From Teichococcus aestuarii (GTDB lineage Bacteria > Pseudomonadota > Alphaproteobacteria > Acetobacterales > Acetobacteraceae), in the NCBI RefSeq assembly GCF_003116135.1, contig NZ_PDOA01000005.1, positions 248,001 to 312,000 on the forward strand: a DNA stretch of 64,000 bases, given 5' to 3'. Below the pieces are notes generated by a model. It did no database searches, was not told where the DNA came from, and was given only the letters and a program-made list of their open reading frames with translations. The translations under genes were made by a program, and so were the position numbers. Shown here piece by piece: positions 924-22,857 of the stretch (position 1 is the first letter of the stretch; each line of letters opens with the position of its first letter).

Positions 924-938
924 ATAGCGTCAGGCTAT
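924..938. promoter_or_regulatory. Candidate LysR-type operator (T-N11-A palindrome)
   Basis: ATAGC-gtcag-GCTAT is a perfect 5-base-arm palindrome with the T-N11-A layout preferred by LysR regulators. It lies in the short divergent gap and overlaps the ATG of the LysR gene at 937, a position suited to autorepression. This is inference from sequence shape only. Confidence 0.35.
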
Positions 939-3988: not shown

Positions 3989-4058
3989 GGGGTGTCCTTT
4001 CGGTGTGGTCAGAAAAAAGCGGAGGCGCGGAGGGGAGGACGGCGCGGCCGCCCTCCGG

Positions 4059-5252: not shown

Positions 5253-5462
5253 GCCAGGCCGCCTTTCATCCGGTCGTGAGGAGTGGGGGATGGGTCCCGG
5301 CCGCACCGAATGGCGGGCACCGGGGCTCAAGAGTGTGTTCGCGGCGTGACTTTGGCGCGCAAAGGGGAAATTGCGGGTGAGTGGCGAGAATGCCGCCCGC
5401 CCGCGCCGTGACCGTCCTCCGGCAAGCTGCCTTGGCGTTGCTTCGCGCGCCTCAGTCAGCGG

Positions 5463-6074: not shown

Positions 6075-6244
6075 GGGGTCTTCCGGGAAGGTGGATGACA
6101 TCCGCCTGCGGGCCCGTGGGGCTCAGCAACCTGGCGGACGCAATGCCATGACATATGACCGGGAGCGGAGGTTGCTTCTCTCGGCGGGACTCAGGGCCTC
6201 AGATCCGGTGCGCGTCGCCAAGCCGGATGAGGCCCAGAAGATGG

Positions 6245-7549: not shown

Positions 7550-7771
7550 GGTTCCCGTTCCTGAGCAGAGAGGCAGGGAGATGTCTGGGAAACGGGCATG
7601 AGGTCAAGGGCGCTGGCATTTCCCCACATTCCCGGGGCTTGTCAGAGGGGAGGCGGAATGGCGCCGCAGCGTGGGGACTGCCTCTGATGACCTGTCCTCT
7701 TGGCTCGATTTTGGGTCATGCCCCATCGCGTGGTGTAGGAGCTATGGTGTCGGTGGGTCGGGTGGCCGGGA

Positions 7772-8737
7772 TCATGCTGGCACGGCGGAGAGCCTGATGG
7801 GACCAGTATCGCTGACTGCGGCGACGGTCTCCAGCGTCATGTAGCGCGACCGCTGGATGGCCTATTCGTCGGACTGTTCGAGGAGGATGGCGCCGACGAG
7901 CCGCACGACGGCAGCCTCATTCGGGAATATGCCGACCACATCGGTAAGGCGCTTGATCTCGCCATTGAGGCGCTCGATGGGGTTGGTGCTGTGGAGCTTG
8001 GCACGGTGCGCGGCCGGGAATGTCATGTAGGCGAGGACATCCTCCTAGGCGCCATTCATGAGGGCAGCGAGCTTCGGGACCTTCGGCCACAACTGGTCGG
8101 CTACCACTCTCCACTGCCGCTTGGCGCCCTCTGCATCGGGCTCCGCGTAGGTGGTGCCGATCCAGGCCGAGACGATGCGGCGCTGCGCTGCGCCTTCCCG
8201 GCATGCGCCAGCAGAGTGCGGGCAAAATGAACGCGGCACCTTTGCCAGGTGGCCCTGAGCACCTTCGTCACGGCGGCCTTGAGGTCCTCGTGGGCATCCG
8301 GAGACGACGAGCTTCACGTCCCTGAGGCCGCGGCGGGCGAGGCCGCGCAGGAAATCGAGCCAGAACGGCTCCGCTTCGGACCTGCCCACCACCATGCCGA
8401 GCACCTCGTGCCGCCCGTCAGCGTTGACGCCCACAGCAACGGAGACGATACGCCCTGCGTCGCGCACCTTTACGTAGGTCGCGTCCAGCCAGAGATAGGA
8501 CCAGTCGCCCTCGATGGGGCGGGCCAGGGAGTCGCCCATCCGCTCGTTAATCTCGGCGCAGAGGCGGCTGGGCTCTTAGAGGCCCCTTCCAGGCCCATGG
8601 TGCGAACCAGATCGTCGACCGAGCGCATCGAGATGTCCTGGAGATAGGCCTCCTGGATCACCGCTATCAGCGCTTTCTCGGCGGTCCGCCATGGCTCCAG
8701 GAAGGCGGGGAAGTAGGAGCCGCGCCGTCAGTGGGGT
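7772..8737 (-). pseudogene. IS256-family (mutator-type) transposase remnant
   Basis: Translating the minus strand in pieces gives a recognisable IS256 transposase: [38 protein letters not shown], the DDE-domain start [33 protein letters not shown], then [20 protein letters not shown] and a C-terminal [18 protein letters not shown]. The N-terminal third is missing. There are frame breaks near 8575 and 8300 and TAG stops near 8047 and 7864, so the gene is dead. Its truncated upstream end abuts a sequence resembling an IS21-type terminus (8726-8768), suggesting that a second element cut it. Confidence 0.85.
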
Positions 8738-8768
8738 CCCGTTTGGACGCTGATCACCCCTCTAACAG
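8726..8768. repeat. IS21-type terminus-like sequence
   Basis: The minus strand reads AGGGGTGATCAGCG then TCCAAACGGGACCCC, a form I associate with ends of IS21-family elements in Alphaproteobacteria. It stands exactly where the IS256-type transposase loses its N-terminus. No IstA/IstB genes are nearby, so this is a lone end. Recognition is from memory and needs a database comparison. Confidence 0.35.
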
Positions 8769-8917
8769 GGTTCCTATTCCACGCCGATCCACAGCTGAAA
8801 GCCTGCAAGTTGAGCCGTATTGGTGAATTAGCCAAGAATCTCTGGCTGCACCCGTTCCCCTCCCCAATATTTCTTCATAAGCTCAGGCTAGCCAACTGAA
8901 CCCCGGGCGCTGTTGCG

Positions 8918-10540
8918 GTGCGGATTCTACCCACGACTGTCTTGAACCCGAATACGCCGGATGGCGAACGCTATGTGCGATCGCTGCTGGCTGCAGCACC
9001 TGCATCTCCCGGCGCCTTCGTTACTCACTCGGTGAACCTGCCCGAGCATGCCTATAAGCGGTACGGAGAGGCCGACTTCGTCCTCGTTGACCGGCGAGGG
9101 CTCCTGGTCATCGAAGTAAAGGGGGGAATTGTCCGGCACTCGGGGGGCGTCTGGAGCTTCGAAAACGGACGAGGGCAGGCAAGGCGGCGCTCCGAGGGCC
9201 CGCATAGGCAGGCCGAGTCAGGCATGCAGGCACTCCTCCGGACGCTCGCGCGCGCCGACGCCCCGCCGATCGGCATTTTCGGTTGGGTGGTGGTGACACC
9301 CTTCACTTTTTGGGCCGCGCCCCACCCCGAGATCCCAGTCCCGCTGCTTCTCGACCGTTCGGCCTGCACCTCGCCTTTTAGTTTCACCGAGGCTCTGGAC
9401 CGTGCCTTCCAGTGGTGGCGCGATAGGGCGGTCGCGTCAGGCCGCGCCACCCATCCGCTGGACTCTGCCGCCCTGGAGCGCCACCTGCTCCCGGAGTTCC
9501 AGTACGCCCCAGCCCCTGCGCGGTGCGCGGAGGCTGTCGAGGGGGACGTCGTCCGCCTGACTGAACGGCAAGCGGAAATACTTGAGGGGCTCTCGGGTAA
9601 CACGCGGCTGCTTGTCGAGGGGGGAGCCGGGACAGGCAAGACGCTCCTGGCGGCAGCGTCCGCGAGGCAGGCCGCGGCCTCAGGGAGCAGCGTAGGCCTG
9701 ATCGTCGCCGCGCCGGTCCTGGCGGCTTACCTCGCCGCCGAGATGCCCAGGGTGACAGTGGTCGATCCCGCGACGATGCGGTACCTGCCCGCACGATCCC
9801 TTGATGTCCTCGTCGTGGACGAAGGGCAGGAACTGGCTAATTCTGAGGGGCTGCACCAAGCCGGGCGCCTGCTCAGGAAAGGGCTGGACGCCGGGTGCTG
9901 GCGCTGGTTCATGGACCCTGCCAACCAAGCGCTCCACTCGACCATTGAGCAGGGCAGCCTCGCGCGTCTACGCGCGATGTCAGCCTACTACCGCTTGACC
10001 CGGAACGTCAGGTCGACGCGCAACATCGTCAACTTCGTCCGAGGCACCGTCGGCGCCGACGTGGGCATCTCTGACATCGATCCCAGAGGTGTCCTCCCGC
10101 ACATTGAGCACGTGCTCGGCCCCGCAGCCGCCGCCCTCGAGGCAGCTGTTAGACGGGCACGCGAATGGATCGACACCGGCGTCGCACCGGGCGACATCGC
10201 GCTACTCGCGGCGGAGCAGGACGTGACTTCCCTTCTCGAACTGGCGCGCCGGAACCTCGGCGACGACGTGGCTCTGCTGGCCGCTCCCGCTGCACTCGAC
10301 GCGGCCCGCACGCGCGCCGCAGTGAGCGATCCCTCGACCTTCCGGGGGATGGAGCGGGCGTGGGTAGCGGTTGCGTGCACGCCTAGCTTCGCGGAGCAGC
10401 CGAGAAGCGAGCGGTTTCTGTACGTCGCCATGACCCGCCCGAGAATTGGGCTTGCGGTGTTCTTGGCCGATGGCGCGGACGCTTGGTTTAAGGGCCTCCA
10501 GGCCGAACAGGAATCACGGGCGCAGGAAACGACCCAATGA
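8918..10540 (+). CDS. NERD nuclease-domain SF1 helicase, first gene of the DISARM-like operon
   Basis: 540 residues from a GTG start. Residues about 10-165 are a NERD domain, a PD-(D/E)XK-type nuclease fold: GEADFVLVDRRGLLVIEVKG carries the likely catalytic D53, E66 and K68. Residues about 212-525 are a UvrD-like helicase/ATPase with Walker A GGAGTGKT (235-242), Walker B VVDEGQEL (about 299-306), an arginine motif TRNVRSTRNI and a C-terminal motif near FRGMERAWVAVAC. Its last codons overlap the next gene by 4 bases (ATGA), so translation is coupled. In this operon it could supply the nuclease that DISARM normally takes from DrmC. The domain calls are clear; the role is inferred. Confidence 0.88.
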   Translation: MRILPTTVLNPNTPDGERYVRSLLAAAPASPGAFVTHSVNLPEHAYKRYGEADFVLVDRRGLLVIEVKGGIVRHSGGVWSFENGRGQARRRSEGPHRQAESGMQALLRTLARADAPPIGIFGWVVVTPFTFWAAPHPEIPVPLLLDRSACTSPFSFTEALDRAFQWWRDRAVASGRATHPLDSAALERHLLPEFQYAPAPARCAEAVEGDVVRLTERQAEILEGLSGNTRLLVEGGAGTGKTLLAAASARQAAASGSSVGLIVAAPVLAAYLAAEMPRVTVVDPATMRYLPARSLDVLVVDEGQELANSEGLHQAGRLLRKGLDAGCWRWFMDPANQALHSTIEQGSLARLRAMSAYYRLTRNVRSTRNIVNFVRGTVGADVGISDIDPRGVLPHIEHVLGPAAAALEAAVRRAREWIDTGVAPGDIALLAAEQDVTSLLELARRNLGDDVALLAAPAALDAARTRAAVSDPSTFRGMERAWVAVACTPSFAEQPRSERFLYVAMTRPRIGLAVFLADGADAWFKGLQAEQESRAQETTQ

Positions 10541-13500
10541 CCCGCATGACCGAATCCTTGCCCGCTCCGAGGTCTGCCAGCCCGCCGCTCACCACCCGGG
10601 AGAAGCGCACAGCCCGCGACCGGCTGGTTGCCACGCTTCGCGGTGACCTCATCGGCCCGTCGCACGGCGACGCTGAGGAACTGCCAGAGCGACCGGACAA
10701 GCGCTATCTCATGAGCATGCTCTTCCCGCGGAACGCCACGGCCGCGCCCGTCGTGGAGGAGGAGGAGACATCGGCGCCAGACGCCGGTGCAGGAGGCAGC
10801 AACGAGGACGAAGCCACAGACGGCTTCGAGGCGCCGACCGACCTGCTGTTCCAGCGCCTGCCCGCCTCCGTCGGCTTCTCCTTCGCAGTGCCGGCCGGGC
10901 ACCCCTTCTCCGTGGAGATACGGGCCGGGGCCGGCACCTACCGGAAGCGGGTCACGGTGCAGGAGGGAGCGGCTTCCGGAGTCCCGCCACAGCGAGGCGG
11001 AAGCCAGCGAAGGAGGGCATCCTGGGTCCGCTCCGGCCTCTTCCATCCGGCATCCGGCCAAGAGGAACGGGTCGACATATTGTCTACGGGGGCGGTACGG
11101 CGTGGTGCGTTCGGCGGCTGGGCGCAGATCCACGTCTCTACGCGCAGCGGGCCGGAGGATTCCTGGATTGTGACGGTTAGCCTCGTAAACGAGAGGACCG
11201 TTACGGACGAGAACGGCCGCTACGACCCAGAGGACTGCCTCTACCAGGTCTCGCTTGAGGCCGTGCCTTCTGTGGCCGTGCTGCCGTGGCCGTCCCCCGA
11301 ACGGCTCACGGTCGACCCCGAGGAGGACGAACTCGCGCTACAGTACCGGGACCGACCCGCGCTCGCCGTCGGGCACGGCTGTGCCGCTGACTGGAGTCCG
11401 ACGGGCAACGGCAGGACGCGGATACGGGTCGAGTTCTTGCCATCTATCGAGGTCGCTCCGGTCACGACGCGGATCCGTGACCTGGACGAGCGCGCGAGCC
11501 GGGCGCTCAGCCTCCAGCGCCTGCAGTCCGAAGCCGTGGCCGTGGACGACCTCCTGGGCCACCTGCGGGCCCTCGTGGAGGCGTATGCCGCTTGGCGCCG
11601 GGGTCTCGACGCCGTCCCCACGGATGACCACCCACCCGAGGCGCGCACCCGAATCCTCGACAGGATCGACGATGGGCTCCGCCGCATGCGGGACGGCTGC
11701 GACCTGCTGGCGCGGGATGCTGACGCGCTCCGGTGCTTCCGCCTCGCGAACCGGGCGATGCTCGTCCAGATGGCCTACTCAGGGCGGGTCAAGTCGGCCG
11801 AGAGGGGTGGACGCCCGGCCGTCGGGCGCGTCGACCCCGACGACGCGATGCACGCCGCCTACGAGTGGCGCCCCTTCCAGCTCGCCTTCCTGCTGCTGGT
11901 CCTCCGGAGCATGTGGGAGGAGGGCGACCCATTCCGCGACGTCGTCGACCTGATCTGGTTCCCGACAGGCGGCGGCAAGACGGAGGCGTACCTCGCCGCC
12001 GCGGCGTTCGACATGCTACGGCGGAGGCTGCGGGATCCCGGTCGCGGCGGCGGCACCGCAGTCATCATGCGCTATACCCTGCGCCTGCTCACGCAGCAGC
12101 AATTCCAGCGCGCCGGCCACCTCATCTGCGCGCTCGAGAGCCTGCGGATGCAGGATGAGCGCAGTCTGGGGGGCGAGCCGTTCTCGCTGGGCCTTTGGAT
12201 CGGCTCCGGCAACGCCCCGAACGCGCTCTCCGATGCCGCGGAGAAGTTCGACCGCCTCATCCGGCAGCGGCCGGGCCCAGTGCGGAACCCGTTTATTCTC
12301 CTGCGCTGCCCGGCCTGCGGCAGCCCCGTCATCTCCCCCACGCGGCAAACCGACGGGGACGAGGATGTGGGTATCCGTTGCACGCCCGCGGCCTTCGAGT
12401 TCTTCTGCCTGGAGCCGCGGTGCGAGTTCCACCGGAGCATCCCGGTTCAGATCGTGGACGAGGCGCTCTACCGCGCGCCGCCGACGATGCTGCTGGCGAC
12501 GCTCGACAAATTCGCCATGATGGCGTGGAAGGAGAACGCTGGGCGGTTTTTTGGGGCGGGCACGCGCAACGCGCCGCCGTCCCTCGTCATCCAGGACGAA
12601 CTCCACCTTATCTCGGGCCCCCTCGGCACGGTCGCCGGGGGCTACGAGGCCGCCATCGACGCGGTGATCGCCCACCGCGGCGGGCGCCCGAAGGTCATCG
12701 CCTCAACCGCCACAATCCGGCGCTCGGCCGACCAAGCGCTGGGCCTCTTCGCCAAGGAAGCGGCGGTGTTCCCGCCCGCCGGGCTGACGGCCGGCGAGAC
12801 CTTCTTCTCCCGCCCGGACCCCGACGTGCCCGGGCGCCTCTACCTTGGCGCCATGGCGCAGGGCCACACGCCGACCTTCAGCAACGTGCTCGCCTCAGCC
12901 TCCCTGCTGACCGCCGTGCCGAGGCTCGGACTCTCCGATGCAGTGGACGACTCTTGGTGGACGCTCGTCGTGTACCACAACAGCCGGCGCGAGCTCGGGC
13001 GAAGCCTCACCTTGGCCCGCGACGACATTCCCTCCCGCATTGCGGCGCTCCACCCGCCGGGCACGTCCGGCGCCAGGGCGCTGCGCCGGGTACAGGAGCT
13101 CTCGGCCAACGTGAAGGGCGAGGACATCCCCAACGTGATCGAGGAGGTCTCCGCCGGTAAGGGTACCCCCCGCGCCATTGACTACCTTGGCTGCACGAAC
13201 ATGCTGTCCGTCGGGGTGGACATCGACCGGCTCGGCCTGATGATGGTGCTCGGGCAGCCGAAGACGGCGTCGGAGTACATCCAGGCGACGTCGCGCGTCG
13301 GCCGCGACGGAACACGCCTCCCGGGCGTCGTGCTCGCTTTATACTCCCCCACGAAGCCCCGGGACCGCTCACACTACGAGAACTTCCGGCCCTTCCATGA
13401 TGCCCTCTACAGGTTTGTGGAGCCGACGAGCGTCACCCCCTTCGCGCTCCCGGCGCGGGAGCGGGTGTTCCACGCCGCCATGATCAGCGCGATCAGGATG

Positions 13501-13908
13501 GGGACCGCCCTGTCCGGCAACGCCGATGCGGCACGCTTCTCGACGGCAGACCCGCAGGTTCGGGCGCTGGCGGACCGCCTCTACGAAAGGATGAGGCGGG
13601 CCGACCCGACTGAGCGCCGGGGCATCGACTCGAAGGCGGCGGAGGTGGAGCGGTGGTGGGAGACGCGGCTCGCGCAGAACCTCAGATACGCGATGCCGCC
13701 GCAGGCCATGAATTTCCCCGTGCTTATCAAGCAGTTCGGTGAGCAGGCCCATCCGGAGGCCCGCGAGACGCTTCAGTCCATGCGCCACGTGGACGTCGGC
13801 GTCCGGGTTTGGATCAGGGGCGCAAGGCCGTCCGATGCGCCTTCGGGCGGCAACCCGCCCACCCTGAGACCATGGGGCGGGGCCGCCCGGCGGAGGAACG
13901 GTACGTGA
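10537..13908 (+). CDS. drmA: DrmA-like DISARM helicase
   Basis: 1123 residues. An N-terminal region of about 450 residues is followed by an SF2 helicase core: Walker A WFPTGGGKTEAY (about 474-485), DExH box QDELHLISGPLGT (about 685), motif III-like ASTATIR and motif VI QATSRVGRDG (about 915). Cysteine pairs CPACGSP (about 590) and CLEPRC (about 623) suggest a zinc site inside the core. Size, the DELH box with following SGPLGT, and the DUF1998 partner immediately downstream match DrmA of DISARM. DrmA-DrmB act together in phage restriction. It overlaps the genes on both sides by 4 bases. I am confident of the family and less sure of the function in this variant. Confidence 0.88.
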   Translation: MTRMTESLPAPRSASPPLTTREKRTARDRLVATLRGDLIGPSHGDAEELPERPDKRYLMSMLFPRNATAAPVVEEEETSAPDAGAGGSNEDEATDGFEAPTDLLFQRLPASVGFSFAVPAGHPFSVEIRAGAGTYRKRVTVQEGAASGVPPQRGGSQRRRASWVRSGLFHPASGQEERVDILSTGAVRRGAFGGWAQIHVSTRSGPEDSWIVTVSLVNERTVTDENGRYDPEDCLYQVSLEAVPSVAVLPWPSPERLTVDPEEDELALQYRDRPALAVGHGCAADWSPTGNGRTRIRVEFLPSIEVAPVTTRIRDLDERASRALSLQRLQSEAVAVDDLLGHLRALVEAYAAWRRGLDAVPTDDHPPEARTRILDRIDDGLRRMRDGCDLLARDADALRCFRLANRAMLVQMAYSGRVKSAERGGRPAVGRVDPDDAMHAAYEWRPFQLAFLLLVLRSMWEEGDPFRDVVDLIWFPTGGGKTEAYLAAAAFDMLRRRLRDPGRGGGTAVIMRYTLRLLTQQQFQRAGHLICALESLRMQDERSLGGEPFSLGLWIGSGNAPNALSDAAEKFDRLIRQRPGPVRNPFILLRCPACGSPVISPTRQTDGDEDVGIRCTPAAFEFFCLEPRCEFHRSIPVQIVDEALYRAPPTMLLATLDKFAMMAWKENAGRFFGAGTRNAPPSLVIQDELHLISGPLGTVAGGYEAAIDAVIAHRGGRPKVIASTATIRRSADQALGLFAKEAAVFPPAGLTAGETFFSRPDPDVPGRLYLGAMAQGHTPTFSNVLASASLLTAVPRLGLSDAVDDSWWTLVVYHNSRRELGRSLTLARDDIPSRIAALHPPGTSGARALRRVQELSANVKGEDIPNVIEEVSAGKGTPRAIDYLGCTNMLSVGVDIDRLGLMMVLGQPKTASEYIQATSRVGRDGTRLPGVVLALYSPTKPRDRSHYENFRPFHDALYRFVEPTSVTPFALPARERVFHAAMISAIRMGTALSGNADAARFSTADPQVRALADRLYERMRRADPTERRGIDSKAAEVERWWETRLAQNLRYAMPPQAMNFPVLIKQFGEQAHPEARETLQSMRHVDVGVRVWIRGARPSDAPSGGNPPTLRPWGGAARRRNGT

Positions 13909-15737
13909 GTACAGGCAAGAACTACGAACTCCGTCGCACCCAGCTCGTCGGCGCCGGGGGCATCGGCGCTGTCATCGACATCGGCGACGAGTCCTTCGTT
14001 GTCTGCGACGCGGTGGATTGGGGCTCGCCCTCGGAGTACGTCCGCCTACAGCGGATGGAGCAGCGGCTCCGCCGCGACCTCAGGAAGCCGCCCGCGGACC
14101 GCCCGGGGTCGCCGGGGCGCGTGCTCTTGCACCGCTTCCCCGAGGCCATGTTCTGCAACAACGCCCGGTGCCGCCGCATCATCCGATGGCAGGAGGCCCG
14201 GCACGGACGCCCTGGACTGCCGATGAGGTGCCCTCAGTGCCAGCAGGAGGGCACGCTGGTACCGATGCGGTTCGTGGTCGCCTGCGAGGATGGCCACCTG
14301 GACGACGTGCCATGGCACCTGTGGGCCCACAAATCGAGCCGGGGCGGCTGCCGCTCCCATGAGCGGTTGAAGCTGCTGGTGGACGAGACCGGGACGGGCG
14401 GCCTCGAAACGCTGAAGATCCTCTGCGAGGACTGCGGGTCATCCGAGTCGCTCGACGGCATCACGTCAAAGGTGTCCATGAAGTCTGTCGGGGTGCGCTG
14501 CCCATCGTGCCATCCCTGGCAGGCCCGAACGGGCGGGTTCACCTGCACGAAGGAGCCTTCGATCCTCCAGCGCGGCGCCACGAACCTGTACTACCCCGTC
14601 ACCGCGTCCGCCCTCTCGCTGGGGGATGGCAGCGGTACCTCGGCGCATGACGCGGCGGTGGCCAGGATGCTGGCCTCGACCACCTTCGAGATGGCGAAGG
14701 AGGTTGCAGCCGATCTTGCGTCGACGGGCAACGTACCCCACCCGAGGATCGCCCGGTTTGCCCAGATGCTCGCCGACGAGTTCGCGCTGCCCGTCGAACT
14801 CGTCCTGGAGCACCTTCGTGCATCTGCGCCTGTCGGTGGGGCAGCATCCAGCGCCGCGGAGGACGGCGATCCGGATTGGGATGCCGAGGACATCCTGGCC
14901 GAGGAGTGGCGCTTCCTGACATCGGCCGAGGCCGCCGACTTCGCGTCAGGCGATCTCGTCTGCCGGGAGACACCTCCTCCGACAGTCGGGGGGGGCGCGC
15001 CGTTCGCGCGCGTCCTGCTCGCGGATCGGCTCCGGGAGGTCCGGTCCTTTCTCGGCTTTAGGCGCATCAAGCCGGACGGGGCGCTGGTGCGGCCTGAGGC
15101 CGGCCGCGCCTTTCCCCCCGGGGTTCGCCCATGGCTGCCCTCGGTCGAGGTATTCGGCGAAGGCATATTCATTGCCTTCGACCTCGACTTCGTCTCCCGG
15201 TGGGAGGTGGTGGTCCGGGCGGACCGCGACGAGTCCGCGCGGCTCGCCGAACTCGAGCGCCACTGGCAGGACCAGGGATACTGGTTCCTGCCGAGGCCGA
15301 CGCCGAGGTTGATCGCCATCCACACCCTCTCCCATCTGCTGATGAGGCAGCTCGTGTTCGAGTCCGGCTACTCCTCCTCTGCCCTGCGCGAGAGGATCTA
15401 TGCGGGCCCCGACATGGCCGGGCTGCTCATCTACACGGCGGACGGCGACTCCGAAGGCTCCCTCGGCGGCCTAGTACGGCAGGGGCGGCCGGACAGGCTC
15501 GGCGACCTCATCAGGGTGGCCCTGGACCGCGGGGTGTGGTGCTCTGCGGACCCGGTGTGCCGGGAGACCCAAGGGCAGGGACTCGGCGGCTTCAACCGGG
15601 CCGCCTGCCATGCCTGCTCCCTTGTCCCCGAGACCTCTTGCGTGCTCGCCAACACGCTGCTCGACAGGAGCCTCCTTCTTGGACGCGGGTCGTCCCTCCC
15701 GGGCCTGCTCGAGGGCGTGCTGGCGGGCTCGCCATGA
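13905..15737 (+). CDS. drmB: DrmB-like DUF1998 protein
   Basis: 610 residues from GTG 13905, which overlaps the upstream stop as GTGA; an ATG at 13809 lies deep in drmA and is rejected. The N-terminus RRTQLVGAGGIGAVIDIGD is the conserved DrmB opening. Several cysteine pairs follow (CNNARC, CPQC, CEDCGSS, CPSC). The DUF1998 signature is C-terminal: AIHTLSHLLMRQLVFESGYS, then AGLLIYTADGDSEGSLGGLV and the closing cysteines CHACSLVPETSC. In DISARM, DrmB partners the DrmA helicase and helps recognise unmodified DNA. Position and domains agree with that role. Confidence 0.9.
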   Translation: MSTGKNYELRRTQLVGAGGIGAVIDIGDESFVVCDAVDWGSPSEYVRLQRMEQRLRRDLRKPPADRPGSPGRVLLHRFPEAMFCNNARCRRIIRWQEARHGRPGLPMRCPQCQQEGTLVPMRFVVACEDGHLDDVPWHLWAHKSSRGGCRSHERLKLLVDETGTGGLETLKILCEDCGSSESLDGITSKVSMKSVGVRCPSCHPWQARTGGFTCTKEPSILQRGATNLYYPVTASALSLGDGSGTSAHDAAVARMLASTTFEMAKEVAADLASTGNVPHPRIARFAQMLADEFALPVELVLEHLRASAPVGGAASSAAEDGDPDWDAEDILAEEWRFLTSAEAADFASGDLVCRETPPPTVGGGAPFARVLLADRLREVRSFLGFRRIKPDGALVRPEAGRAFPPGVRPWLPSVEVFGEGIFIAFDLDFVSRWEVVVRADRDESARLAELERHWQDQGYWFLPRPTPRLIAIHTLSHLLMRQLVFESGYSSSALRERIYAGPDMAGLLIYTADGDSEGSLGGLVRQGRPDRLGDLIRVALDRGVWCSADPVCRETQGQGLGGFNRAACHACSLVPETSCVLANTLLDRSLLLGRGSSLPGLLEGVLAGSP

Positions 15738-17140
15738 GGCTGCCGAACGCGCGCGACCTGAACGAAGAGCAGGAACGGGTCTATCTGTACGCGCCCGAGG
15801 ACGGCCGCGTCCTCGTCTCGGGACCGCCCGGCACGGGAAAGACCGTACTCGCGGTGTTGAGGGCTATGGAGGCGGCGAAGAAGGGCCGACGGACCGCCGT
15901 GGCGATGTTCAACAGGATGCTCGAGGCATACGCGTGCCGCCTCCCGGACGGTATCGGGTCGCTCGAGGCTCAGGGAATCCAGGTGCAGACCGTGCGCCAG
16001 CTCTTCAGGGATCTGTGGTTCGGCTTGCGGGTTCCACCGGCCGCGAACGCAGCATTGATTCTCCTCGACACTTCTTTCGATGAACGTGAGAAGGTCAAGA
16101 AGCTTGGTGCTAAGTGGAAGCCTGCGATCTGGGCACCCTGGAGCCGGAAGAATGGCAAATCTCGTGGCTACAGTTGGACGGTGGAACCCGACGAGTACTG
16201 GCAGAATCCCGGTGCGTTCAGTAGATGGTCTCCCACGTCTGATCTTCCTGCCTCCGAGGAAAATGAGTTCGCTGTCGACTGGGACACTGTTACCCGGCAC
16301 CTCCTGAAGCACCAGTCCGTCGCCCGCTGGGACGCTCTGTCCATTGACAAGCTGATCATCGACGAGGGCCAGGACTTCCCACCGGAGTTTTTTAGGCTGC
16401 TGCGGTTGATGTCCGAGGGAGTGATTGGACCGGAGGGGCGACCACTAGCGGTAATGGTGCTGGCCGACGAGAACCAGCGCCTCAGCGCCAAGCAGCACTC
16501 GACCATATCGGACATTGAGACGGCCCTGGCGATCCCGGCTTCGCGCCATTACCATCTGCGTACCAACTTTCGGAACACAAGGCAGGTCGCGCTCGTTGCG
16601 CAGCACTTCTTCGCCGGAGCGAACACGGGCATCCCGCTGCTTCCTGAGCGAAGGGGACCGACTCCGGAAATGCGGCGCTGTGAGAACGTGCAGGCGGCTG
16701 TGGAGCAGATCGTTACGTACCAACGCAACAACCCGAAGCATGAGATCGGGGTGCTCATACCCGACGACGACACTGCCCGCCGGGCCTACTTCGACGCGCT
16801 GCGTACGGCGGCCGCTCCTTCGAGCGTGCGCGTCCAGACCTATGCCTTTCGAGACCCGGAATTCAACCAGCCGAAGCGGCACCTCGTCTTCGACGAGCCT
16901 GCTGTGACGGTGTTGAACCGTGCCAGCTGCAAGGGACTGGAGTTCGATGCAGTCTTTGTCGTCAACATCCATGCAGCCCGGATCGAGGAGGGCCAGGAGG
17001 ACTTCTTTAAGATGGGCATGTACGTCATGTCGGCGCGGGCCCGTCGAAGCCTTGCTCTCCTGTGGGTCGGCGGGCCCTCGGATAGGCCCCCAGTGCTCGG
17101 GTTGATGCCGCGAGCACCTGCCATCAGGATTCTGGCATGA
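15734..17140 (+). CDS. UvrD-like SF1 helicase with inserted DUF5710-like module
   Basis: 468 residues, start ATG 15734 overlapping drmB by 4 bases. Helicase motifs: Walker A GPPGTGKT (30-37), Walker B IIDEGQDFPPEF (about 208-219), motif III-like LADENQRL, motif IV TNFRNTRQVA, motif V NRASCKGLEFDAVFVVN. Between Walker A and B, residues about 108-155, lies DTSFDEREKVKKLGAKWKPA followed by tryptophan- and tyrosine-rich sequence, the pattern of the small DUF5710-type module. This piece has lower GC than its flanks, which suggests later insertion. It should be an ATP-driven DNA translocase. Its partner function within this DISARM-like operon is unknown. Confidence 0.85.
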   Translation: MRLPNARDLNEEQERVYLYAPEDGRVLVSGPPGTGKTVLAVLRAMEAAKKGRRTAVAMFNRMLEAYACRLPDGIGSLEAQGIQVQTVRQLFRDLWFGLRVPPAANAALILLDTSFDEREKVKKLGAKWKPAIWAPWSRKNGKSRGYSWTVEPDEYWQNPGAFSRWSPTSDLPASEENEFAVDWDTVTRHLLKHQSVARWDALSIDKLIIDEGQDFPPEFFRLLRLMSEGVIGPEGRPLAVMVLADENQRLSAKQHSTISDIETALAIPASRHYHLRTNFRNTRQVALVAQHFFAGANTGIPLLPERRGPTPEMRRCENVQAAVEQIVTYQRNNPKHEIGVLIPDDDTARRAYFDALRTAAAPSSVRVQTYAFRDPEFNQPKRHLVFDEPAVTVLNRASCKGLEFDAVFVVNIHAARIEEGQEDFFKMGMYVMSARARRSLALLWVGGPSDRPPVLGLMPRAPAIRILA

Positions 17141-19095
17141 GTTCGGACAGTCCTGTTCCCCATCTTGTCTCCAATTTCCGAGAGTCCCTGTCGATTCTGG
17201 AAAGCCTTCGTGCCTCTGCCCGACCCGGCAGGGGAATGCGGCACCTTACGAGGCGGCCGGTGGTGGACGCGTTGCGGGAAGCGGAGCTGACGGCGGTGAC
17301 GGGGGGCCTGGACGGTGAGTTCCCAGTGCTATGCCGCGTCGAGGTGTCCGCCGGGCCCATCGGCGACACCCAGGCCAACTGCGTTCCGCTTGGGCGAATC
17401 GCGGCGTTCGTCTTCCGCACGGGGGACGAACGCGACCAAGTCGCGGGAAAGATGTTCGAGAACATCAGCACCGACGGGTTGAGCATGGAGGTCGCGCCCG
17501 CACTCTTCAGTCGGGAGGGGCCATCTCGTTTCAACGCGGAGCCCACCGATGGAGCGGCAGGCGAGGCGCAGGACTGGATTCGGGCAGATGCTCTGGCAGG
17601 CGCTGTCGGCACTGTACTATCACTCGCACACCGACGCCTCGAGGCCGCAGCCGAGGCGGGCGCCTTCCTCGACGGCGCCGGGGGCCTCCCAGTCGACCTG
17701 CCCGCCTTCGTCAACTCCCTGCTCTCGCCAGACGGCCCATGGGAGACGCCGGGCACCGCAGTCGCCGCAGTCACGTCCAGCCTGCGCGGGCTGCCGGGGC
17801 AGGATCCCCTTGAGCTGGTTGACCTTTACGCAGAGGCGCTCAGGGCCTGCGGTTATTCCTCGGACAACCTCGACAGGTTCAGGAACTTCGTTTCTGACGT
17901 CATCACATCCCGCAGGGCGAGGCGCCCACAGGATCTCGCCGACGAGGGCGACCTGCTGCTCCGGGCGCTCCTTCTCGTTCTACAGAGGGATCGGATAGAC
18001 GATATCCTAGACGATTCGGCCGATGGCATGCTTCCGGGACCGGCTGTCCACCTCACGGCCGCGGCACTCGCTGGCTTCCGCGAGGGCCTCGCGAGGATGC
18101 CCTCGGCGATCAAGCAGCCCTTCCGCGACGTCCTCGGCGAGTTTGCCTCCGCTGTCGAGGCCAACCCATCGGTCCGGCTGGAGGATCTTGCTGCGCCCTT
18201 GAAGGCGCGACTGCCGGCGGCTCCCGCCACCGCGCCGTTGACCTCGACGCTCCAAGACGGCGCGATCCTGCCAAGCGTCGCTGCCAGCGGTGATCTTGAG
18301 CCCGCACTGGTCCGGGAACTGCAACTCGTAGCTGAGTCCCTGGGACTCTCGCAGGCACGGCCCGAGGAGGGCATGCTGGGAACCTGCGCCCAAACCCGCG
18401 TGGCGGTCCTGGTTTCCCCTTTGAGGGACGATGCAGCCCAAGCCCCAACGCTCTGTCTCCGTGTTGTTATCGGCAACATTGCGGGCGGGGCGCTTGTTCG
18501 CGCGGCGCTCTCGGACGCCCTGAAGGCGGAGCCCGGTTCGGTGCTCTGGCTCGCTCCGGGTTCGAACGAACTGGAGTTGGTGCTTCCGATCGGCGCTGCC
18601 ACGGAGCAGAACCTGCCGCGCGTGCTCAGCCACCACGTCGAATTGGCCCGCCGCTGGCATGCCGCTGCCGCGTCCACAGAGCGGCCCGCCAGCGGCGACG
18701 CACCGGCAGAGACCGCGAAGGCCCTGCCGAAGCCGAGGGGCGGGGGTGGCCGCAAGCGACTGGGGCCGTCCTCCACAGGCCAGGGCGCTGGGCCTCCCGA
18801 TGCGGATAAAGCATTAGAAGCTCCGCAGGACGGCTTGAGGGCGACTGGAGGCGGGGAGACGAAGCCAGCCCCGCGGCGCCGGTTGAGGAAGGGCGGTGCC
18901 GAAGAGGTCGAGGGCGAGGCAGCAAAGCCATCTCCGAAACGTCGCTTGCGGAAGGAAGGCGTCGGCCGGGATCGACCCGCCACGAAACAAGTCAACTTCC
19001 TCGGGCCGGTGTCGGACCCGGTGCAGGGCGCCGAACCCGAGGCGGACGCCGAGAAGGCGAGTGCCGATCCACCGCCGGAGGACGGCACTGCCTGA
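17137..19095 (+). CDS. Unrecognised 652-residue protein, last gene of the DISARM-like operon
   Basis: Its ATG overlaps the helicase stop by 4 bases, so it belongs to the operon. Residues 1-140 are mixed alpha/beta (LDGEFPVLCRVEVSAGPIGD). Residues 150-470 are mostly helical. The last 130 residues are disordered and basic, with three related clusters (KPRGGGGRKRLG, KPAPRRRLRKGG, KPSPKRRLRKEG) that could bind DNA. It has no Walker, phospholipase-D HKD or known nuclease motif, so it is neither DrmC nor a helicase. Likely a structural, adaptor or DNA-binding subunit specific to this variant. Function unknown. Confidence 0.75.
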   Translation: MSSDSPVPHLVSNFRESLSILESLRASARPGRGMRHLTRRPVVDALREAELTAVTGGLDGEFPVLCRVEVSAGPIGDTQANCVPLGRIAAFVFRTGDERDQVAGKMFENISTDGLSMEVAPALFSREGPSRFNAEPTDGAAGEAQDWIRADALAGAVGTVLSLAHRRLEAAAEAGAFLDGAGGLPVDLPAFVNSLLSPDGPWETPGTAVAAVTSSLRGLPGQDPLELVDLYAEALRACGYSSDNLDRFRNFVSDVITSRRARRPQDLADEGDLLLRALLLVLQRDRIDDILDDSADGMLPGPAVHLTAAALAGFREGLARMPSAIKQPFRDVLGEFASAVEANPSVRLEDLAAPLKARLPAAPATAPLTSTLQDGAILPSVAASGDLEPALVRELQLVAESLGLSQARPEEGMLGTCAQTRVAVLVSPLRDDAAQAPTLCLRVVIGNIAGGALVRAALSDALKAEPGSVLWLAPGSNELELVLPIGAATEQNLPRVLSHHVELARRWHAAAASTERPASGDAPAETAKALPKPRGGGGRKRLGPSSTGQGAGPPDADKALEAPQDGLRATGGGETKPAPRRRLRKGGAEEVEGEAAKPSPKRRLRKEGVGRDRPATKQVNFLGPVSDPVQGAEPEADAEKASADPPPEDGTA

Positions 19096-19119: not shown

Positions 19120-20895
19120 TCAGTCGAAGAGTTCGGGCAGCCTGGACGGCGGTTCCGGCAGGTCGACTACGCGGACCTGCTCCCAAGCGTCGTCGCGCTT
19201 GCACCATTCGGTGACATTCCGCGTCCCGGCGCTAGAGACAAGCGCTTCGTGTAGCGGTCGAGCCCACGACGCGAAGAGCGCCTGGATCTCGCTGGAGGCA
19301 TGCTGCGCCCGCCAGACAGTGTCGAGGTCGAATTGGCCGCCGAAGTCAGCGGCGAGGCGGGCAACCATGAACGCCACAACGTTGGCTCCGTACGACCCGA
19401 GCTCCGCCGCCCTGACTGCGGATTGGGCCGACCTGAACAGAATCGCGAGCGACACCGCTTCGCGATAGAACGCGGGGTCCGGCTTCCATCCCCGCTGAAA
19501 CTTGTCCGGAAGCTCGGACATGAAGATGGCGAAGTTCTTCTGCGCGCCCCGACTGACGGTCTGCGGACGCTCCCACCAGCACATGAGGAACTTCGCGAGG
19601 TCGGTCTTGCTGAAAACGTTGCCCTTTGGACACACCGCATCGAACTCGCGGCGTTTCGCCGCGGTCGAGCCGAACCGCGCGCGGGCTACTTGGTAGGCAC
19701 CCCGGGTTCTCTCGTAGAACCAGCGCGTCCGCTCCCCGGGGCACCACAGCTGCTCGGAGAGCCGCTCGAGTTCGATGTGGAAATCACTGTTGGCAGATAG
19801 GTCAGCCACCTGGATTACGTTCTGCGTGTTGGCGTATCGCGAGATCAAGGGCACGAACTCGGAGAGGCGACCGGCCTCCACCCGAGTCAGCTTCATGGCC
19901 ACGGCAACTTGGCTGACATCCATCCGGTCGACCTTCTTTGCGCGGTGGATGGAGGCGGTGGTCTGGGCGCCATTCACGATCTGGAGACCCCTGACGCGGC
20001 GGATGACCGTCTCGCCGTGCCAGGAGCCGGCGTCAATCTCGTCAGCCGTGGCGGTGATGCCGTTGTTGTATGCCAGGAAGCGGCCTGACTCCTCGGCAAT
20101 GGTCCTCCGGATGCCCTTGTTCACGCCCCCCTTCGCCTGCAGGAAGGATCGGACGTTGAACTCGAACAGCCTTGCCCCGTATCGCTCGTAGAGGGCGAAA
20201 ACTAGGTCGCCGGGAAGGATTGCGAGGAACGTCTGGTACTCGCGGGGAGGCGGCCTCATCTCCAGGCATGCCAGCGGTCTACCAAGCATCTCCACGAAGT
20301 CGATCTCGATGCGCTCCCGCGTGACCCCCTCGGCGGCCGCACGCTTCAACCGCTCCGCATCCCAGACTTCGAACTCCACTCGGCGCCCGTGGATTTCCAT
20401 CGGCGGGATGTCTGCCCCCCTGACCACAGCATCGGTCAGCACGTGGACGCGCACGTCCTCAATGCGCGGCAGCTCGGCCGCGATGCGGCGCGCCGCGGCA
20501 TCGGCGAGGGCGCTTCCAGCGAAGCGGGTCAGGTCGCCCCTCGCCGCGTGCTCGAAGAAGCGCGCCGCCGCCGCCCCTATGCGGACGGTCTCGCTCCGCG
20601 GCAGCGTGGCCTCGCGGTCGTCCGGCCTGCGGTAAGCGGTAAAGATCTCCAGCCGAGAAGCCTCATCCGGGAGGGAGTAGGCAGCCACGCGACAGCGCGA
20701 GCGGCCCGAGGCGTCCTCGTGAGGGCAGAGGTCGTGGGACGCGACGGAACCTGCTTCCTCAAGGTAACCGAGCATGACCTCGGCGAGCGCCACATGCTCC
20801 GCGAGTGGCGTCTCCGGCTCGATCTCACCGAGCCGGTCATCAGTCTCCGTACGCAGGTTTGAAAGGAATTCTGCGAGCAGTTGGTCCTCAAACAA
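19120..20895 (-). CDS. AIPR-family (abortive infection phage resistance) protein
   Basis: 591 residues, convergent with the DISARM-like operon. The AIPR hallmark is at about 247-290: FNVRSFLQAKGGVNKGIR, then AYNNGITATADEI, followed by RGLQIVNGAQTTASI and VPLISRYANTQNVIQVADL. Family members are named for abortive-infection phage resistance and often lie beside modification genes; their molecular activity is poorly known. The gene is divergent from the vsr-methyltransferase pair. It could be an independent defence gene or a component added to the DISARM-like system. Confidence 0.9.
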   Translation of the reverse strand: MFEDQLLAEFLSNLRTETDDRLGEIEPETPLAEHVALAEVMLGYLEEAGSVASHDLCPHEDASGRSRCRVAAYSLPDEASRLEIFTAYRRPDDREATLPRSETVRIGAAAARFFEHAARGDLTRFAGSALADAAARRIAAELPRIEDVRVHVLTDAVVRGADIPPMEIHGRRVEFEVWDAERLKRAAAEGVTRERIEIDFVEMLGRPLACLEMRPPPREYQTFLAILPGDLVFALYERYGARLFEFNVRSFLQAKGGVNKGIRRTIAEESGRFLAYNNGITATADEIDAGSWHGETVIRRVRGLQIVNGAQTTASIHRAKKVDRMDVSQVAVAMKLTRVEAGRLSEFVPLISRYANTQNVIQVADLSANSDFHIELERLSEQLWCPGERTRWFYERTRGAYQVARARFGSTAAKRREFDAVCPKGNVFSKTDLAKFLMCWWERPQTVSRGAQKNFAIFMSELPDKFQRGWKPDPAFYREAVSLAILFRSAQSAVRAAELGSYGANVVAFMVARLAADFGGQFDLDTVWRAQHASSEIQALFASWARPLHEALVSSAGTRNVTEWCKRDDAWEQVRVVDLPEPPSRLPELFD

Positions 20896-21332
20896 ATGCC
20901 TTCTCCGGCTTCTCCGCGGCCTGCCCTGCCGGTACTGCTACGGCCTGGAGGCGAGTTCCATAGCTTTAGGCTCTGGAATACTCCCGCCGCCCTTTCCGAA
21001 CCCGGGAACCGTCGGATTTTCCGGGTAAAGGTGAGGCGGTCACCCCTATCAAACTCCGGAGATGTCCGGCGCCGCGGTGCCAATCCGGCGCCCGTCTCTC
21101 CGCCGAGCTCCACGCCGCAGAGATGGCCAGGGCCGTCGCGGTCGGAACCACTTCTCCTTTCGGGCGCTAATCCGTTCGACGGTCGCGTCAGAACCCGGCA
21201 GAAGGGAAGTGACCCAGCTTGACCCCACGTGCGACACAATAGATCCTTGGTGGAACGGTGCAAGACGAAGATCTACCTCTAAAGGGCCTTGGCGGGACGC
21301 CGCCGCCGGCGCGACGGCATCGGGGGGACATC
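20896..21332. other. Divergent promoter region between AIPR and vsr genes
   Basis: About 440 bases without a convincing gene. It must hold promoters for both AIPR (leftward) and vsr-methyltransferase (rightward). TTGACC at 21219 is a possible -35, but the nearest -10-like sequence (TAGATC at 21240) is 15 bases away, so I do not call a promoter. TTCCA/TGGAA arms around 20957-20979 make a weak palindrome. Confidence 0.4.
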
Positions 21333-21764
21333 ATGTCCCCCGAGAAGCGCAGCGCCGTAATGGCCCGCATCAAAGGAAGGGACACTGGTCCCGAACGCGC
21401 CGTCGCCGAGGCGCTCCGCGCCAGAGGCTGGGATTTCGAGACCCACGCGCGCGACCTGCCAGGACGCCCAGACATACTGTTCAGGGAGGCCGGGGTGGCC
21501 GTTTTCGTGGATGGCGACTTCTGGCACGGATGGAAGTTTCCGCAGTGGAAGGACAAGCTCTCCGAGAAGTGGGAGGCCAAGATCGAGGCGAACCGGCAGC
21601 GGGACGCTCGGAACTTCCGTCGGCTCCGCCGCGCGGGGTGGCGCGTGGTAAGGATCTGGGAGCACCAAATTGGCCGGGATCTTCCCGCCTGTATCGCGCG
21701 GATCGAGTCCTTGCTGCCACCATGCGACGGTGCCTGCATCGGCAGCGTCACTACACGCGGGTGA
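21333..21764 (+). CDS. Vsr-like very short patch repair endonuclease
   Basis: 143 residues from ATG 21333, preceded by a G-rich ribosome site; this matches the usual Vsr length, so the upstream in-frame ATG at 21258 is not used. The opening SPEKRSAVMARIKGRDTGPE and LPGRPDILFREAGVAVFVDG are the standard Vsr start and nuclease core, followed by DFWHGW and GWRVVRIWEHQIG. Vsr nicks T:G mismatches that arise from 5-methylcytosine deamination, so it pairs with the cytosine methyltransferase downstream. The cysteine zinc ligands of classical Vsr (GCFWH, HDC, WEC) are replaced here (GDFWH, WKF, WEH). Confidence 0.9.
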   Translation: MSPEKRSAVMARIKGRDTGPERAVAEALRARGWDFETHARDLPGRPDILFREAGVAVFVDGDFWHGWKFPQWKDKLSEKWEAKIEANRQRDARNFRRLRRAGWRVVRIWEHQIGRDLPACIARIESLLPPCDGACIGSVTTRG

Positions 21765-21810: not shown

Positions 21811-22857
21811 GTGCGAATCCGAACTCTAGATCTCTTCTGCGGCGGCGGCGGCAGCAGCTGGGGCGCCCAGGCTGCTGGTGCCGAGATCGTCTGCGGCGTT
21901 GATGCCTGGGACCTCGCGGTTCGGGCGTACGCGAGCAACTTCTCGACGGCCAAGGCGGTCCACCTGCGGATGACGCCGGAGAGTGGCCCCGCCGACCTCG
22001 GCGACATCGGCGAAATCGACCTGCTGCTCGGCTCCCCCGAATGCACTCACCATACCTGCGCGCGCGGGAGTAGGCCCCGGGACGAGGACAGCAAGCGTAC
22101 TGCTTTCTACGTCACCAACTTCGCCCGGGACCTCAGCCCGAGGCCGCGCTGGGTGGTCATCGAGAACGTTGTCCACATGCGCGGCTGGCACGGCTACGAG
22201 CCGCTTCTCACCGAATTGCGGCGCCTCGGGTACAGGACCGAGGTCTACATCCTCGACGCTTCCCGTTTCGGGGTTCCGCAGAGCCGGCGGAGGGTCTTCA
22301 TCGTCGGCGACCTCGCTGCCCAGCCGCCGTCGGAGGTGCGGGGGCAGCGGGGACGCGCCCCCTGGGTGAAGGGCATTATTGCCGCAGAAGACGAGGGCCA
22401 TCGCTCCCGTCTGCTCCGGTCGGAGGGTCGCGCCCCCGCCACGCTGGAGCGCGCCAAGCGGGGCATCGCCGCGCTCGGCGAGGGCACCCCCTTCCTCATC
22501 GTCTACTACGGCTCGGACGGCGCCGGCGGATGGCAGCCGCTCGACCGGCCGCTCCGCACCATCACGACGCTAGATCGCTTCGGGCTGGTGACTTGGCGCG
22601 GCAGCACACCGATGCTGCGCATGCTCCAGGTGGACGAACTCATGGCCGCCATGGGATTCTGGGGTGGGTACAACCTCGATGGGATCGGCCAGCGGCGGGA
22701 CCGCATTCGATTACTCGGCAACGGTGTCTGCCCGCCGGTAATGGCCGCTATTGTCGGGTCTCTGACGCGCGGGGCGGCGCAGACAGCTTCCTGGGCAGAG
22801 GACGAGGAAGCTCCGCACGACTCCCCTGGTCCCCTGTTCCTGGCGGCTGCCGAGTAG
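21811..22857 (+). CDS. DNA (cytosine-5) methyltransferase
   Basis: 348 residues from a GTG start. Motifs in order: I DLFCGGGGSSWGAQ (SAM binding), IV GSPECTHHTCAR (catalytic Cys in the SPEC form instead of PPCQ), VI VIENVVHM, VIII QSRRRVFIVGD, and a C-terminal GNGVCPPV that equals motif X-type GNAV. The target-recognition region lies about 190-270. It methylates cytosine in a specific, here unknown, sequence. Beside a DISARM-like operon it would correspond to DrmMII and protect host DNA; vsr just upstream counters its mutagenic side effect. The family is certain, the DISARM role inferred. Confidence 0.9.
   Translation: MRIRTLDLFCGGGGSSWGAQAAGAEIVCGVDAWDLAVRAYASNFSTAKAVHLRMTPESGPADLGDIGEIDLLLGSPECTHHTCARGSRPRDEDSKRTAFYVTNFARDLSPRPRWVVIENVVHMRGWHGYEPLLTELRRLGYRTEVYILDASRFGVPQSRRRVFIVGDLAAQPPSEVRGQRGRAPWVKGIIAAEDEGHRSRLLRSEGRAPATLERAKRGIAALGEGTPFLIVYYGSDGAGGWQPLDRPLRTITTLDRFGLVTWRGSTPMLRMLQVDELMAAMGFWGGYNLDGIGQRRDRIRLLGNGVCPPVMAAIVGSLTRGAAQTASWAEDEEAPHDSPGPLFLAAAE

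What the first reader, a model, noticed from the sequence alone, without database searches (positions are those of the whole stretch)
8918..19095. DISARM-like operon with a NERD nuclease-helicase in place of DrmC
Five genes with 4-base overlaps: NERD-SF1 helicase, DrmA-like, DrmB-like (DUF1998), UvrD-like helicase with inserted module, and a 652-residue unknown protein. DISARM as described (Ofir and colleagues) has drmA, drmB and the phospholipase-D nuclease drmC plus drmD/drmMI or drmE/drmMII. Here I see no HKD phospholipase motif, no SNF2 protein and no DrmE. Two SF1 helicases and a PD-(D/E)XK-type NERD domain replace them. Tight translational coupling says the five work together. This may be an undescribed DISARM class.
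Basis: partly seen in the sequence, partly recalled or inferred. Interest (0 to 1): 0.88.

Follow-up and report, generated by a model that had tools for sequence, protein, structure and literature searches.

The report
DISARM-like defence operon without DrmC
A five-gene bacterial operon looks like a relative of the DISARM phage-defence system that lacks DISARM's usual nuclease and partner genes, carrying instead a nuclease-helicase, a second helicase and an unknown protein, and relatives with the same core occur in distant bacteria.

Summary
Window 8918-19095 (+) holds five coupled genes: NERD-SF1 helicase, DrmA, DrmB, an SF1 helicase with a DUF5710-like insert (g4), and an unknown 652-aa protein (g5). 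DrmA and DrmB are firm by HMM and match the solved DISARM complex. No DrmC, DrmD, DrmE or DrmMI was found.

The five genes are not the unit: the conserved core is DrmA-DrmB-g4-g5, found in Acetobacteraceae, two Photobacterium plasmids, another Pseudomonadota chromosome, a prophage-like contig and a Deinococcus plasmid; a Streptomyces plasmid lacks g5. NERD-helicase is in 3 of 8 distinct clade loci. These DrmAs form one clade (100/99), apart from class 1 and DrmE loci. NERD-helicase and DrmC never co-occur in 80 loci, but a tree-aware test is not significant. Vsr and C5-methylase genes lie downstream, past an opposite-strand AIPR gene.

Best reading: a DISARM-like class in which DrmAB senses DNA ends and NERD-helicase, where present, is the nuclease. 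The mechanism is inferred; the g5 fold is unresolved. Our paper searches found no description, but a 2025 preprint notes "many uncharacterized DISARM-like" classes.

The parts
8918..10540 (+). gene 1: NERD nuclease-SF1 helicase (540 aa, GTG start); E51-x-D53 and E66-x-K68 read as the PD-(D/E)XK site (assignment by eye); Walker A/B present
   Evidence: NERD 37.8 bits; RTasNERD-Hel 50.5 bits and Nhi 38.1 bits; the E-x-D-F...E-x-K pattern kept in 30 of 31 NERD-Hel proteins tested; motif positions
10537..13908 (+). gene 2: DrmA, split YprA-like SF2 helicase (1123 aa)
   Evidence: PADLOC DrmA 637 bits; NF038325 832.6 bits, cut-off 950; PDB 7s9v_A DrmA 448 bits
13905..15737 (+). gene 3: DrmB, MZB/DUF1998 protein (610 aa, GTG start)
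   Evidence: NF038324 400 bits, cut-off 240; MZB 32.1 bits, cut-off 24.2; PDB 7s9v_B DrmB 228 bits
15734..17140 (+). gene 4 (g4): SF1 (HelD/UvrD-like) helicase with DUF5710-like insert (468 aa)
   Evidence: DUF5710 above cut-off in L110 and L138, below it here; g4 profile over 150 bits in 10 of 10 clade loci, at most 72 bits in the other 105
17137..19095 (+). gene 5 (g5): unknown protein (652 aa); last ~140 residues low-complexity with basic repeats
   Evidence: no family hit; g5 profile hits in 9 of 115 DrmA loci, all in the clade; subfamily profiles match at 94.4% and 93.1% probability, one pair does not
19120..20895 (-). AIPR-family (MzaE-like) protein, opposite strand; probably a separate neighbour
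   Evidence: PF10592 286 bits; MzaE NF041935 416 bits, below its cut-off of 1050
21258..21764 (+). Vsr mismatch endonuclease
   Evidence: PF03852 78.8 bits, cut-off 27
21811..22857 (+). C5 cytosine DNA methyltransferase, candidate self-marking enzyme (348 aa)
   Evidence: PF00145 102 bits
2335..23601 (.). stretch shared with an island in P. oryzae; carries a tyrosine integrase (4059-5330, -) and an HTH_17 protein (3749-4324, -)
   Evidence: 95.3% identity over 21273 bases to L008; integrase 102 bits, HTH_17 39.8 bits; in L008 it follows tRNA-Arg and ends in a copy of the tRNA 3' end

Best explanation
The operon encodes a DISARM-like defence system of a separate class. DrmA and DrmB form the split helicase complex that, by analogy with the Serratia DrmAB structure, is held off by an acidic trigger loop and loads on single-stranded 5' ends of incoming DNA. 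Gene 4 (DUF5710-bearing SF1 helicase) and g5 are core partners of this clade's DrmAB, probably for loading or unwinding and for complex assembly or sensing. The NERD-helicase is the nuclease effector in lineages that have it, in the place DrmC has in class 1. Host DNA is spared by cytosine methylation, here probably from the methylase at 21811-22857. Shown here: gene content, coupling, clade, conserved motifs, absence of DrmC/D/E/MI. Inferred: all biochemical steps, the roles of g4 and g5, and the methylase link.
For: DrmA and DrmB match the solved DISARM complex. DrmA 65-106 is an acidic loop at the place of the Serratia trigger loop 176-232, and V1085 aligns with the base-contacting V1296 (my count on the alignments; Serratia features); V1085 is invariant in the 7 clade DrmAs of A3. 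DrmA-DrmB-g4 lie in order in 10 of 10 clade loci and g5 in 9 of 10. Loci L110 and L138, found by DrmA alone, carry g4 and g5. The clade has 100/99 support and SH-aLRT 100 in the larger tree. Its three distinct NERD-Hels group together, 97/96. NERD-Hel and DrmC: 0 both, 30 NERD only, 27 DrmC only, 23 neither, of 80 loci; none of all 115 loci has both. A C5 methylase lies in 9 of 9 clade loci with g5, in L006 only a fragment at the fetch edge.
Against: No function was tested. NERD-Hel is absent from 5 of 8 distinct clade loci, so in those no nuclease is visible and the effector role cannot be general. The exclusion of NERD-Hel and DrmC is not significant when the tree is respected: 8 independent pairs, DrmC differing in 1-2 of them. 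C5 methylases are common near other DrmA loci too (43 of the 74 non-clade flank-complete loci), those of the clade are not one orthologous set, and the Streptomyces locus L093 has none by this profile. The methylase here is cut off from the operon by an opposite-strand gene.
Confidence: 0.55

Rival explanations
1. The core DrmA-DrmB-g4-g5 acts without a nuclease, by loading on and blocking or unwinding invading DNA; NERD-Hel is an optional add-on that widens or strengthens defence.
For: 5 of 8 distinct clade loci have neither NERD-Hel nor DrmC. Bravo et al. [quoted passage not shown]
Against: NERD-Hel is translationally coupled here and in L008, L005 and L092 and keeps its putative nuclease site. 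Unrecognised nuclease activity in g5 cannot be excluded.
Confidence: 0.25
2. Ordinary class 1 or class 2 DISARM that has lost or swapped genes recently.
For: DrmA and DrmB are clearly DISARM-type.
Against: The clade (100/99) is separate from class 1 (100/100) and DrmE loci (100/100) (unrooted). g4 scores at most 72 bits and g5 has no hit in the 105 non-clade loci. g5 matches no DrmE or DrmC profile.
Confidence: 0.1
3. A DNA repair or plasmid-maintenance operon rather than defence.
For: YprA-like helicases also include repair proteins (PMC12458937, passages); helicases and Vsr are repair-type enzymes.
Against: DrmB on a separate gene is the DISARM mark; loci lie on an island, plasmids and a prophage-like contig, several beside methylase or restriction genes; patchy spread: true g5 hits in 3 of 250 genomes of the order, 1 of 385 of the class, 2 of 397 of the family, own genome counted each time.
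Confidence: 0.1

Closest known systems
DISARM class 1 (drmD-drmMI-drmA-drmB-drmC)
   Same: DrmA and DrmB as separate genes; DrmA alignable over residues 25-1091 to Serratia DrmA in two stretches; trigger-loop position and V1296 equivalent kept
   Different: no DrmC, DrmD or DrmMI; DrmA about 200 residues shorter than Serratia DrmA (1123 against 1325); extra g4, g5 and NERD-Hel; separate DrmA clade
DISARM class 2 (drmMII-drmE-drmA-drmB-drmC; gene list recalled)
   Same: DrmA matches NCBI's short DrmA model best; a C5 cytosine methylase near by
   Different: no DrmE: g5 does not match DrmE profiles; the methylase is outside the operon
UvrD-DrmA-DrmB-NERD-Hel loci (L095, L096, L099, L105, L107, L139 and L022), for which no name was found
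   Same: two SF1 helicases, DrmA, DrmB and NERD-Hel
   Different: other gene order, larger UvrD protein (GajB-like in L022, the one tested), no g5 hit, other DrmA groups
TALON (Bell et al. 2025)
   Same: a YprA-like helicase with a NERD nuclease
   Different: TALON has an ARMADA-like YprA, TPR-CSD and TBP genes; no such domain in the five proteins here
Nhi / RTasNERD-Hel
   Same: NERD-helicase proteins (38.1 and 50.5 bits, the best stretch being the helicase part)
   Different: here coupled to DrmAB

Membership tests
DISARM (any class) | DrmA helicase and DrmB (DUF1998/MZB) encoded by separate genes | tested here: met
   the DISARM_DrmAS equivalog cut-off (950) is not reached (832.6)
DISARM (any class) | DrmC phospholipase-D nuclease | tested here: not met
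   no PADLOC DrmC hit in the five proteins, no DrmC profile hit in 1-30000, both strands, no strict HKD motif in 1-25000; own genome has three weak matches of 22-29 bits to a DrmC model, all outside the window
DISARM (any class) | DNA methyltransferase of the system | tested here: inconclusive
   C5 methylase at 21811-22857, 2.7 kb past g5 and beyond an opposite-strand gene
DISARM class 1 | DrmD (SNF2-like) and DrmMI | tested here: not met
   window 1-30000
DISARM class 2 | DrmE | tested here: not met
   profile search and profile-profile comparison; by fold undecided
DISARM (any class) | anti-phage activity | not testable with these tools
   needs plaque assays
ARMADA | unsplit YprA-like helicase with BrxHII-like and PglX-like genes | tested here: not met
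   DrmA and DrmB are separate genes and no BrxH or PglX hit in the five proteins; definition
TALON | NERD nuclease with TPR-CSD and TBP genes and ARMADA-like YprA | tested here: not met
   NERD present, but no TPR, CSD or TBP domain in the five proteins; whether DrmA is ARMADA-like was not tested on a tree

The most novel reading that the evidence does not exclude
A third DISARM class whose conserved core is DrmA, DrmB, a DUF5710 SF1 helicase and a new protein family (g5). It has no fixed nuclease and no methylase of its own: a NERD-helicase is present in some lineages, and self-marking is borrowed from neighbouring cytosine methylases or restriction-modification genes.
Probability: 0.55. Interest if true: 0.7.

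Novelty: new variant of a known kind. Interest (0 to 1): 0.58.

Why it matters
It is not settled how DISARM destroys DNA or why DrmC can be dropped. A clade that dispenses with DrmC and, in some branches, carries a different nuclease-helicase gives natural variants to test whether DrmAB needs a nuclease and which partner proteins it recruits. It also adds a conserved protein family without a known domain (g5). The public records of the Photobacterium and Deinococcus relatives name no DISARM gene: DrmA is 'helicase-related' or 'DEAD/DEAH box helicase family' protein, g4 'AAA family ATPase', g5 'hypothetical protein'.

Tried and rejected
g5 as DrmE or DrmC: comparisons with the accessory-gene profiles gave at most 0.4% probability, while the Acetobacteraceae g5 set finds the Photobacterium/L110/L138 set and the Deinococcus protein at 94.4% and 93.1%; those last two do not match each other directly (0.1%). 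g5 structure: two AlphaFold runs with 3 sequences each gave mean pLDDT 33.9 and 40.6 and were not searched against fold libraries. The g5 match in G014 was rejected as spurious after reading its genes. Matches of the g5 profile to uteroglobin fusions (E 0.006-0.01) and saposins (E about 0.9) in the PDB were not believed. The phage collection gave no tblastn match to P0005 at E 1e-5, and the plasmid collection none to P0006, although g5 relatives lie on plasmids, so such negatives say little. g4 in viral contigs: 32 pattern matches, none confirmed, though L110 was later found by DrmA. C5 methylase as a mark of the clade: 6 of 6 against 43 of 74 flank-complete loci, not specific. Exclusion of NERD-Hel and DrmC: strong by Fisher test (7.9e-8), not supported by independent pairs. 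A search for direct repeats at the window island's two ends failed in the script (exit 1); BLAST of 1-9000 against 18901-45000 showed no repeat over 17 bases.

Rows dropped: before the table, L001-L004, L007, L088, L089, L094, L112 and L121-L137 (short search loci, repeats of other loci, a spurious locus and a Dpd-like locus). The tree used 92 of 115 loci after leaving out DrmA under 950 aa (except L118, L119) and collapsing at 90% identity; the tree used 45 rows of my choice; the NERD-Hel tree left out L006, L008, L118 and L119. The genome scan kept 80 of 211 loci; the plasmid list showed 50 of 85 records, of which I opened the neighbourhoods of 12.
Full report
What is there. Window 8918-19095 holds five + strand genes, all four junctions readable as 4-base overlaps. 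Gene 1 (540 aa) is a NERD nuclease fused to an SF1 helicase (NERD 37.8 bits). Gene 2 (1123 aa) is DrmA (PADLOC 637 bits; NCBIfam DISARM_DrmAS 832.6 bits against a cut-off of 950). Gene 3 (610 aa) is DrmB (NF038324 400 bits, cut-off 240). Gene 4 (g4, 468 aa) is an SF1 helicase whose insert resembles DUF5710: 15.1 bits here, but 67 and 72.5 bits, two copies each, in relatives L110 and L138, and 21-24 bits in L090, L091 and L005 (cut-off 26.5); no such hit in L092 and L093. Gene 5 (g5, 652 aa) has no family hit in three libraries. In the PDB, DrmA and DrmB match chains A and B of the DISARM complex 7s9v (448 and 228 bits).

What is missing. Profiles of DrmC, DrmD, DrmE and DrmMI built from the fetched loci hit no ORF of 80 aa or more on either strand of window 1-30000 at E 1e-4, and there is no strict HKD motif in the six frames of 1-25000. 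The own genome has three weak matches of 22-29 bits to a DrmC model, all outside the window; that model also rings in 9 of 14 control genomes.

Relatives. A scan of genome contigs with DrmA returned the best 80 of 211 loci; of these only L008 (Pseudoroseomonas oryzae KCTC 42542, DrmA 97% identical) has g4 and g5. Searches by g5 gave G043 and G230 among 250 genomes of the order (a fourth hit, G014, is spurious), own only among 385 of the class, and own and G043 among 397 of the family. G043 and G230 have all five genes in the same order. A plasmid search with g4 gave two Photobacterium plasmids and a Deinococcus plasmid with DrmA-DrmB-g4-g5 and a Streptomyces plasmid with DrmA-DrmB-g4; the Deinococcus plasmid also has a NERD-Hel upstream (170 bits to gene 1). 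A DrmA profile found L110 among 18 viral-contig loci and G1003 (L138) among 398 genomes of the phylum, 14 of which, own included, have a DrmA match. L110 and L138 carry g4 and g5 although they were found by DrmA alone. The plasmid collection holds 85 records with a DrmA relative; the four named above rank first, at 41-44% identity, the next at 37.5% (50 of 85 listed).

The g5 family. The link between distant g5 proteins is weak by single sequence (15-22 bits at best, near nothing for some pairs) but clear by profile for two of three comparisons: Acetobacteraceae with the Photobacterium/L110/L138 set 94.4% (9.1e-8), and with the Deinococcus protein 93.1% (3.1e-7); the third comparison did not match (0.1%). 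g5 matches none of the other accessory families tested, and its profile hits 9 of 115 DrmA loci, all in this clade. Two AlphaFold models were too poor to use (mean pLDDT 33.9 and 40.6).

A clade of its own. In a table of 115 DrmA loci, 10 have a g4 over 150 bits, the other 105 at most 72 bits. The same ten have DrmA profile scores of 1348-1813, the next locus 924 (the profile was built from five of the ten; L005, L006, L008, L110 and L138 were not in it). In a 92-row tree the clade (8 rows) has SH-aLRT 100 and one origin. In a careful tree of 45 chosen rows it has 100/99, class 1 100/100, DrmE loci 100/100 and the DrmE-like/NERD ('B520') loci 99/95; UvrD-type loci do not form one group there. 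Both trees are drawn at the midpoint, not rooted. L092 and L093 meet on long branches and their joining may be false.

NERD-helicase and DrmC. After collapsing at 90% identity and asking for flanks (5 kb before, 3.5 kb after DrmA), 80 loci remain: 0 have both, 30 NERD-Hel only, 27 DrmC only, 23 neither (Fisher 7.9e-8). None of all 115 loci has both on either strand. By class, NERD-Hel and DrmC: this clade 3 and 0 of 6; UvrD type 8 and 1 of 17; DrmE 1 and 0 of 9; B520 type 11 and 0 of 12; class 1 0 and 26 of 27; other 7 and 0 of 9. The test that respects the tree finds 8 independent pairs, DrmC differing in 1-2, so it cannot reach significance. In UvrD-type loci NERD-Hel and DrmC stand in the same slot after DrmB: NERD-Hel in L095, L096 and L099, DrmC in L108 (59 bits; PLD domain 59.1 bits). 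The three distinct clade NERD-Hels group together (97/96), which fits inheritance with DrmA and loss in part of the clade; 30 of 31 NERD-Hels tested keep the E-x-D-F...E-x-K pattern. Of the eight distinct clade rows NERD-Hel is in three: window, L005 and L092; L090 and L093 have under 5 kb of upstream sequence, but in both the gene just upstream of DrmA is something else.

Self-marking. A Vsr gene (78.8 bits) and a C5 cytosine methylase (102 bits) lie 2.2 and 2.7 kb past g5, beyond an opposite-strand AIPR gene. A C5 methylase occurs in 9 of 9 clade loci with g5 (in L006 a fragment at the fetch edge) and not in L093; these methylases are not one orthologous set, and 43 of 74 non-clade flank-complete loci have one too. 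The two Photobacterium loci also have restriction endonuclease genes, MvaI/BcnI-type in L090; the 440-aa protein upstream in L005 was called MvaI-like by eye only. So the methylase is a candidate, not a demonstrated part.

How it may work. Bravo et al. (PMC9142583, passages read) report Serratia DrmAB autoinhibited by a trigger loop (176-232), opened by 5' overhang DNA, with V1296 contacting a base, ATP hydrolysis needed, and DrmC apparently non-essential. By my count on the alignments the window DrmA has an acidic loop at that place (65-106) and V1085 aligns with V1296; V1085 is invariant in the 7 clade DrmAs aligned. From this I infer DNA-end sensing by DrmAB, help from g4 and g5, and cutting by NERD-Hel where present. 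Only the sequence features are shown.

Is it known? I searched a 5.39-million-paper open library. The closest paper is Bell et al. 2025 (PMC12458937; outline and abstract, passages, the section on new classes and the figure legends read). It names ARMADA, BRIGADE and TALON and says the DISARM-like clade holds 'many uncharacterized' classes, without describing this one in the text read; its supplements could not be opened. Shield (PMC10270631, passages) reports RmuC proteins in DISARM-like operons; the CoCoNuT paper (PMC11090510, passages) mentions a DISARM-like system beside McrBC; a review (PMC10952713, passages) lists NERD in Mokosh type I and Nhi-like systems. Ofir et al. 2018 is not held, so class definitions rest on Bravo et al., the Shield paper and recall. 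I file it as a new variant of a known kind.

Mobility. Window 2335-23601 is 95.3% identical to an island in P. oryzae. There the island lies after tRNA-Arg(acg) and ends in a 45-base copy of the tRNA's 3' end. In the window the right end shows a tRNA-like 3' end (24 bases, 87.5%), but no tRNA gene was found at the left end.

Noticed in passing
window 2335-23601 and L008:1804-23064: The operon rides on a ~21 kb island with a tyrosine integrase; in P. oryzae it sits at tRNA-Arg with a 45-base repeat of the tRNA 3' end, in the window at another, incompletely resolved site.
   Followed up: partly
window 19120-20895 (-): Single AIPR/MzaE-like gene between the operon and a Vsr-methylase pair; other MZA genes were not looked for.
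   Followed up: no
window 8045-8539 (-): Fragment of a Mutator-family (IS256-type) transposase just upstream of the operon.
   Followed up: no
L110:10007-19588: The core DrmA-DrmB-g4-g5 plus a C5 methylase sits on a viral contig between genes that read by eye as terminase and portal proteins and a lysozyme-like gene, so it may be prophage cargo.
   Followed up: no
L028, L029, L031-L033, L039, L040, L051, L052, L081 and others: Actinobacterial loci with a ~520-aa gene (often a ~340-aa one before it) then NERD-Hel-DrmA-DrmB; the 520-aa family is DrmE-C-like (76.8% probability), so this looks like another undescribed class with a reduced DrmE. L053 (Serratia) and L071 (Pseudomonas) have the same layout: their 537-aa protein matches the 520-aa family (86.3%), their 343-aa protein does not match the 340-aa one (0.5%).
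   Followed up: partly
L095, L096, L099, L105, L107, L139, L022: Recurrent UvrD-DrmA-DrmB-NERD-Hel loci, on Rhizobium or Azospirillum plasmids, viral contigs and genomes; L105 has an Hsp70-like gene upstream (124 bits) and L022 one that looks so by eye; a gene annotated as DarT follows in L095.
   Followed up: partly
L138:12781-17503 (-): Upstream of the core lie genes that read by eye as a MoxR-type ATPase, a VWA-domain protein and a sigma-54 activator.
   Followed up: no
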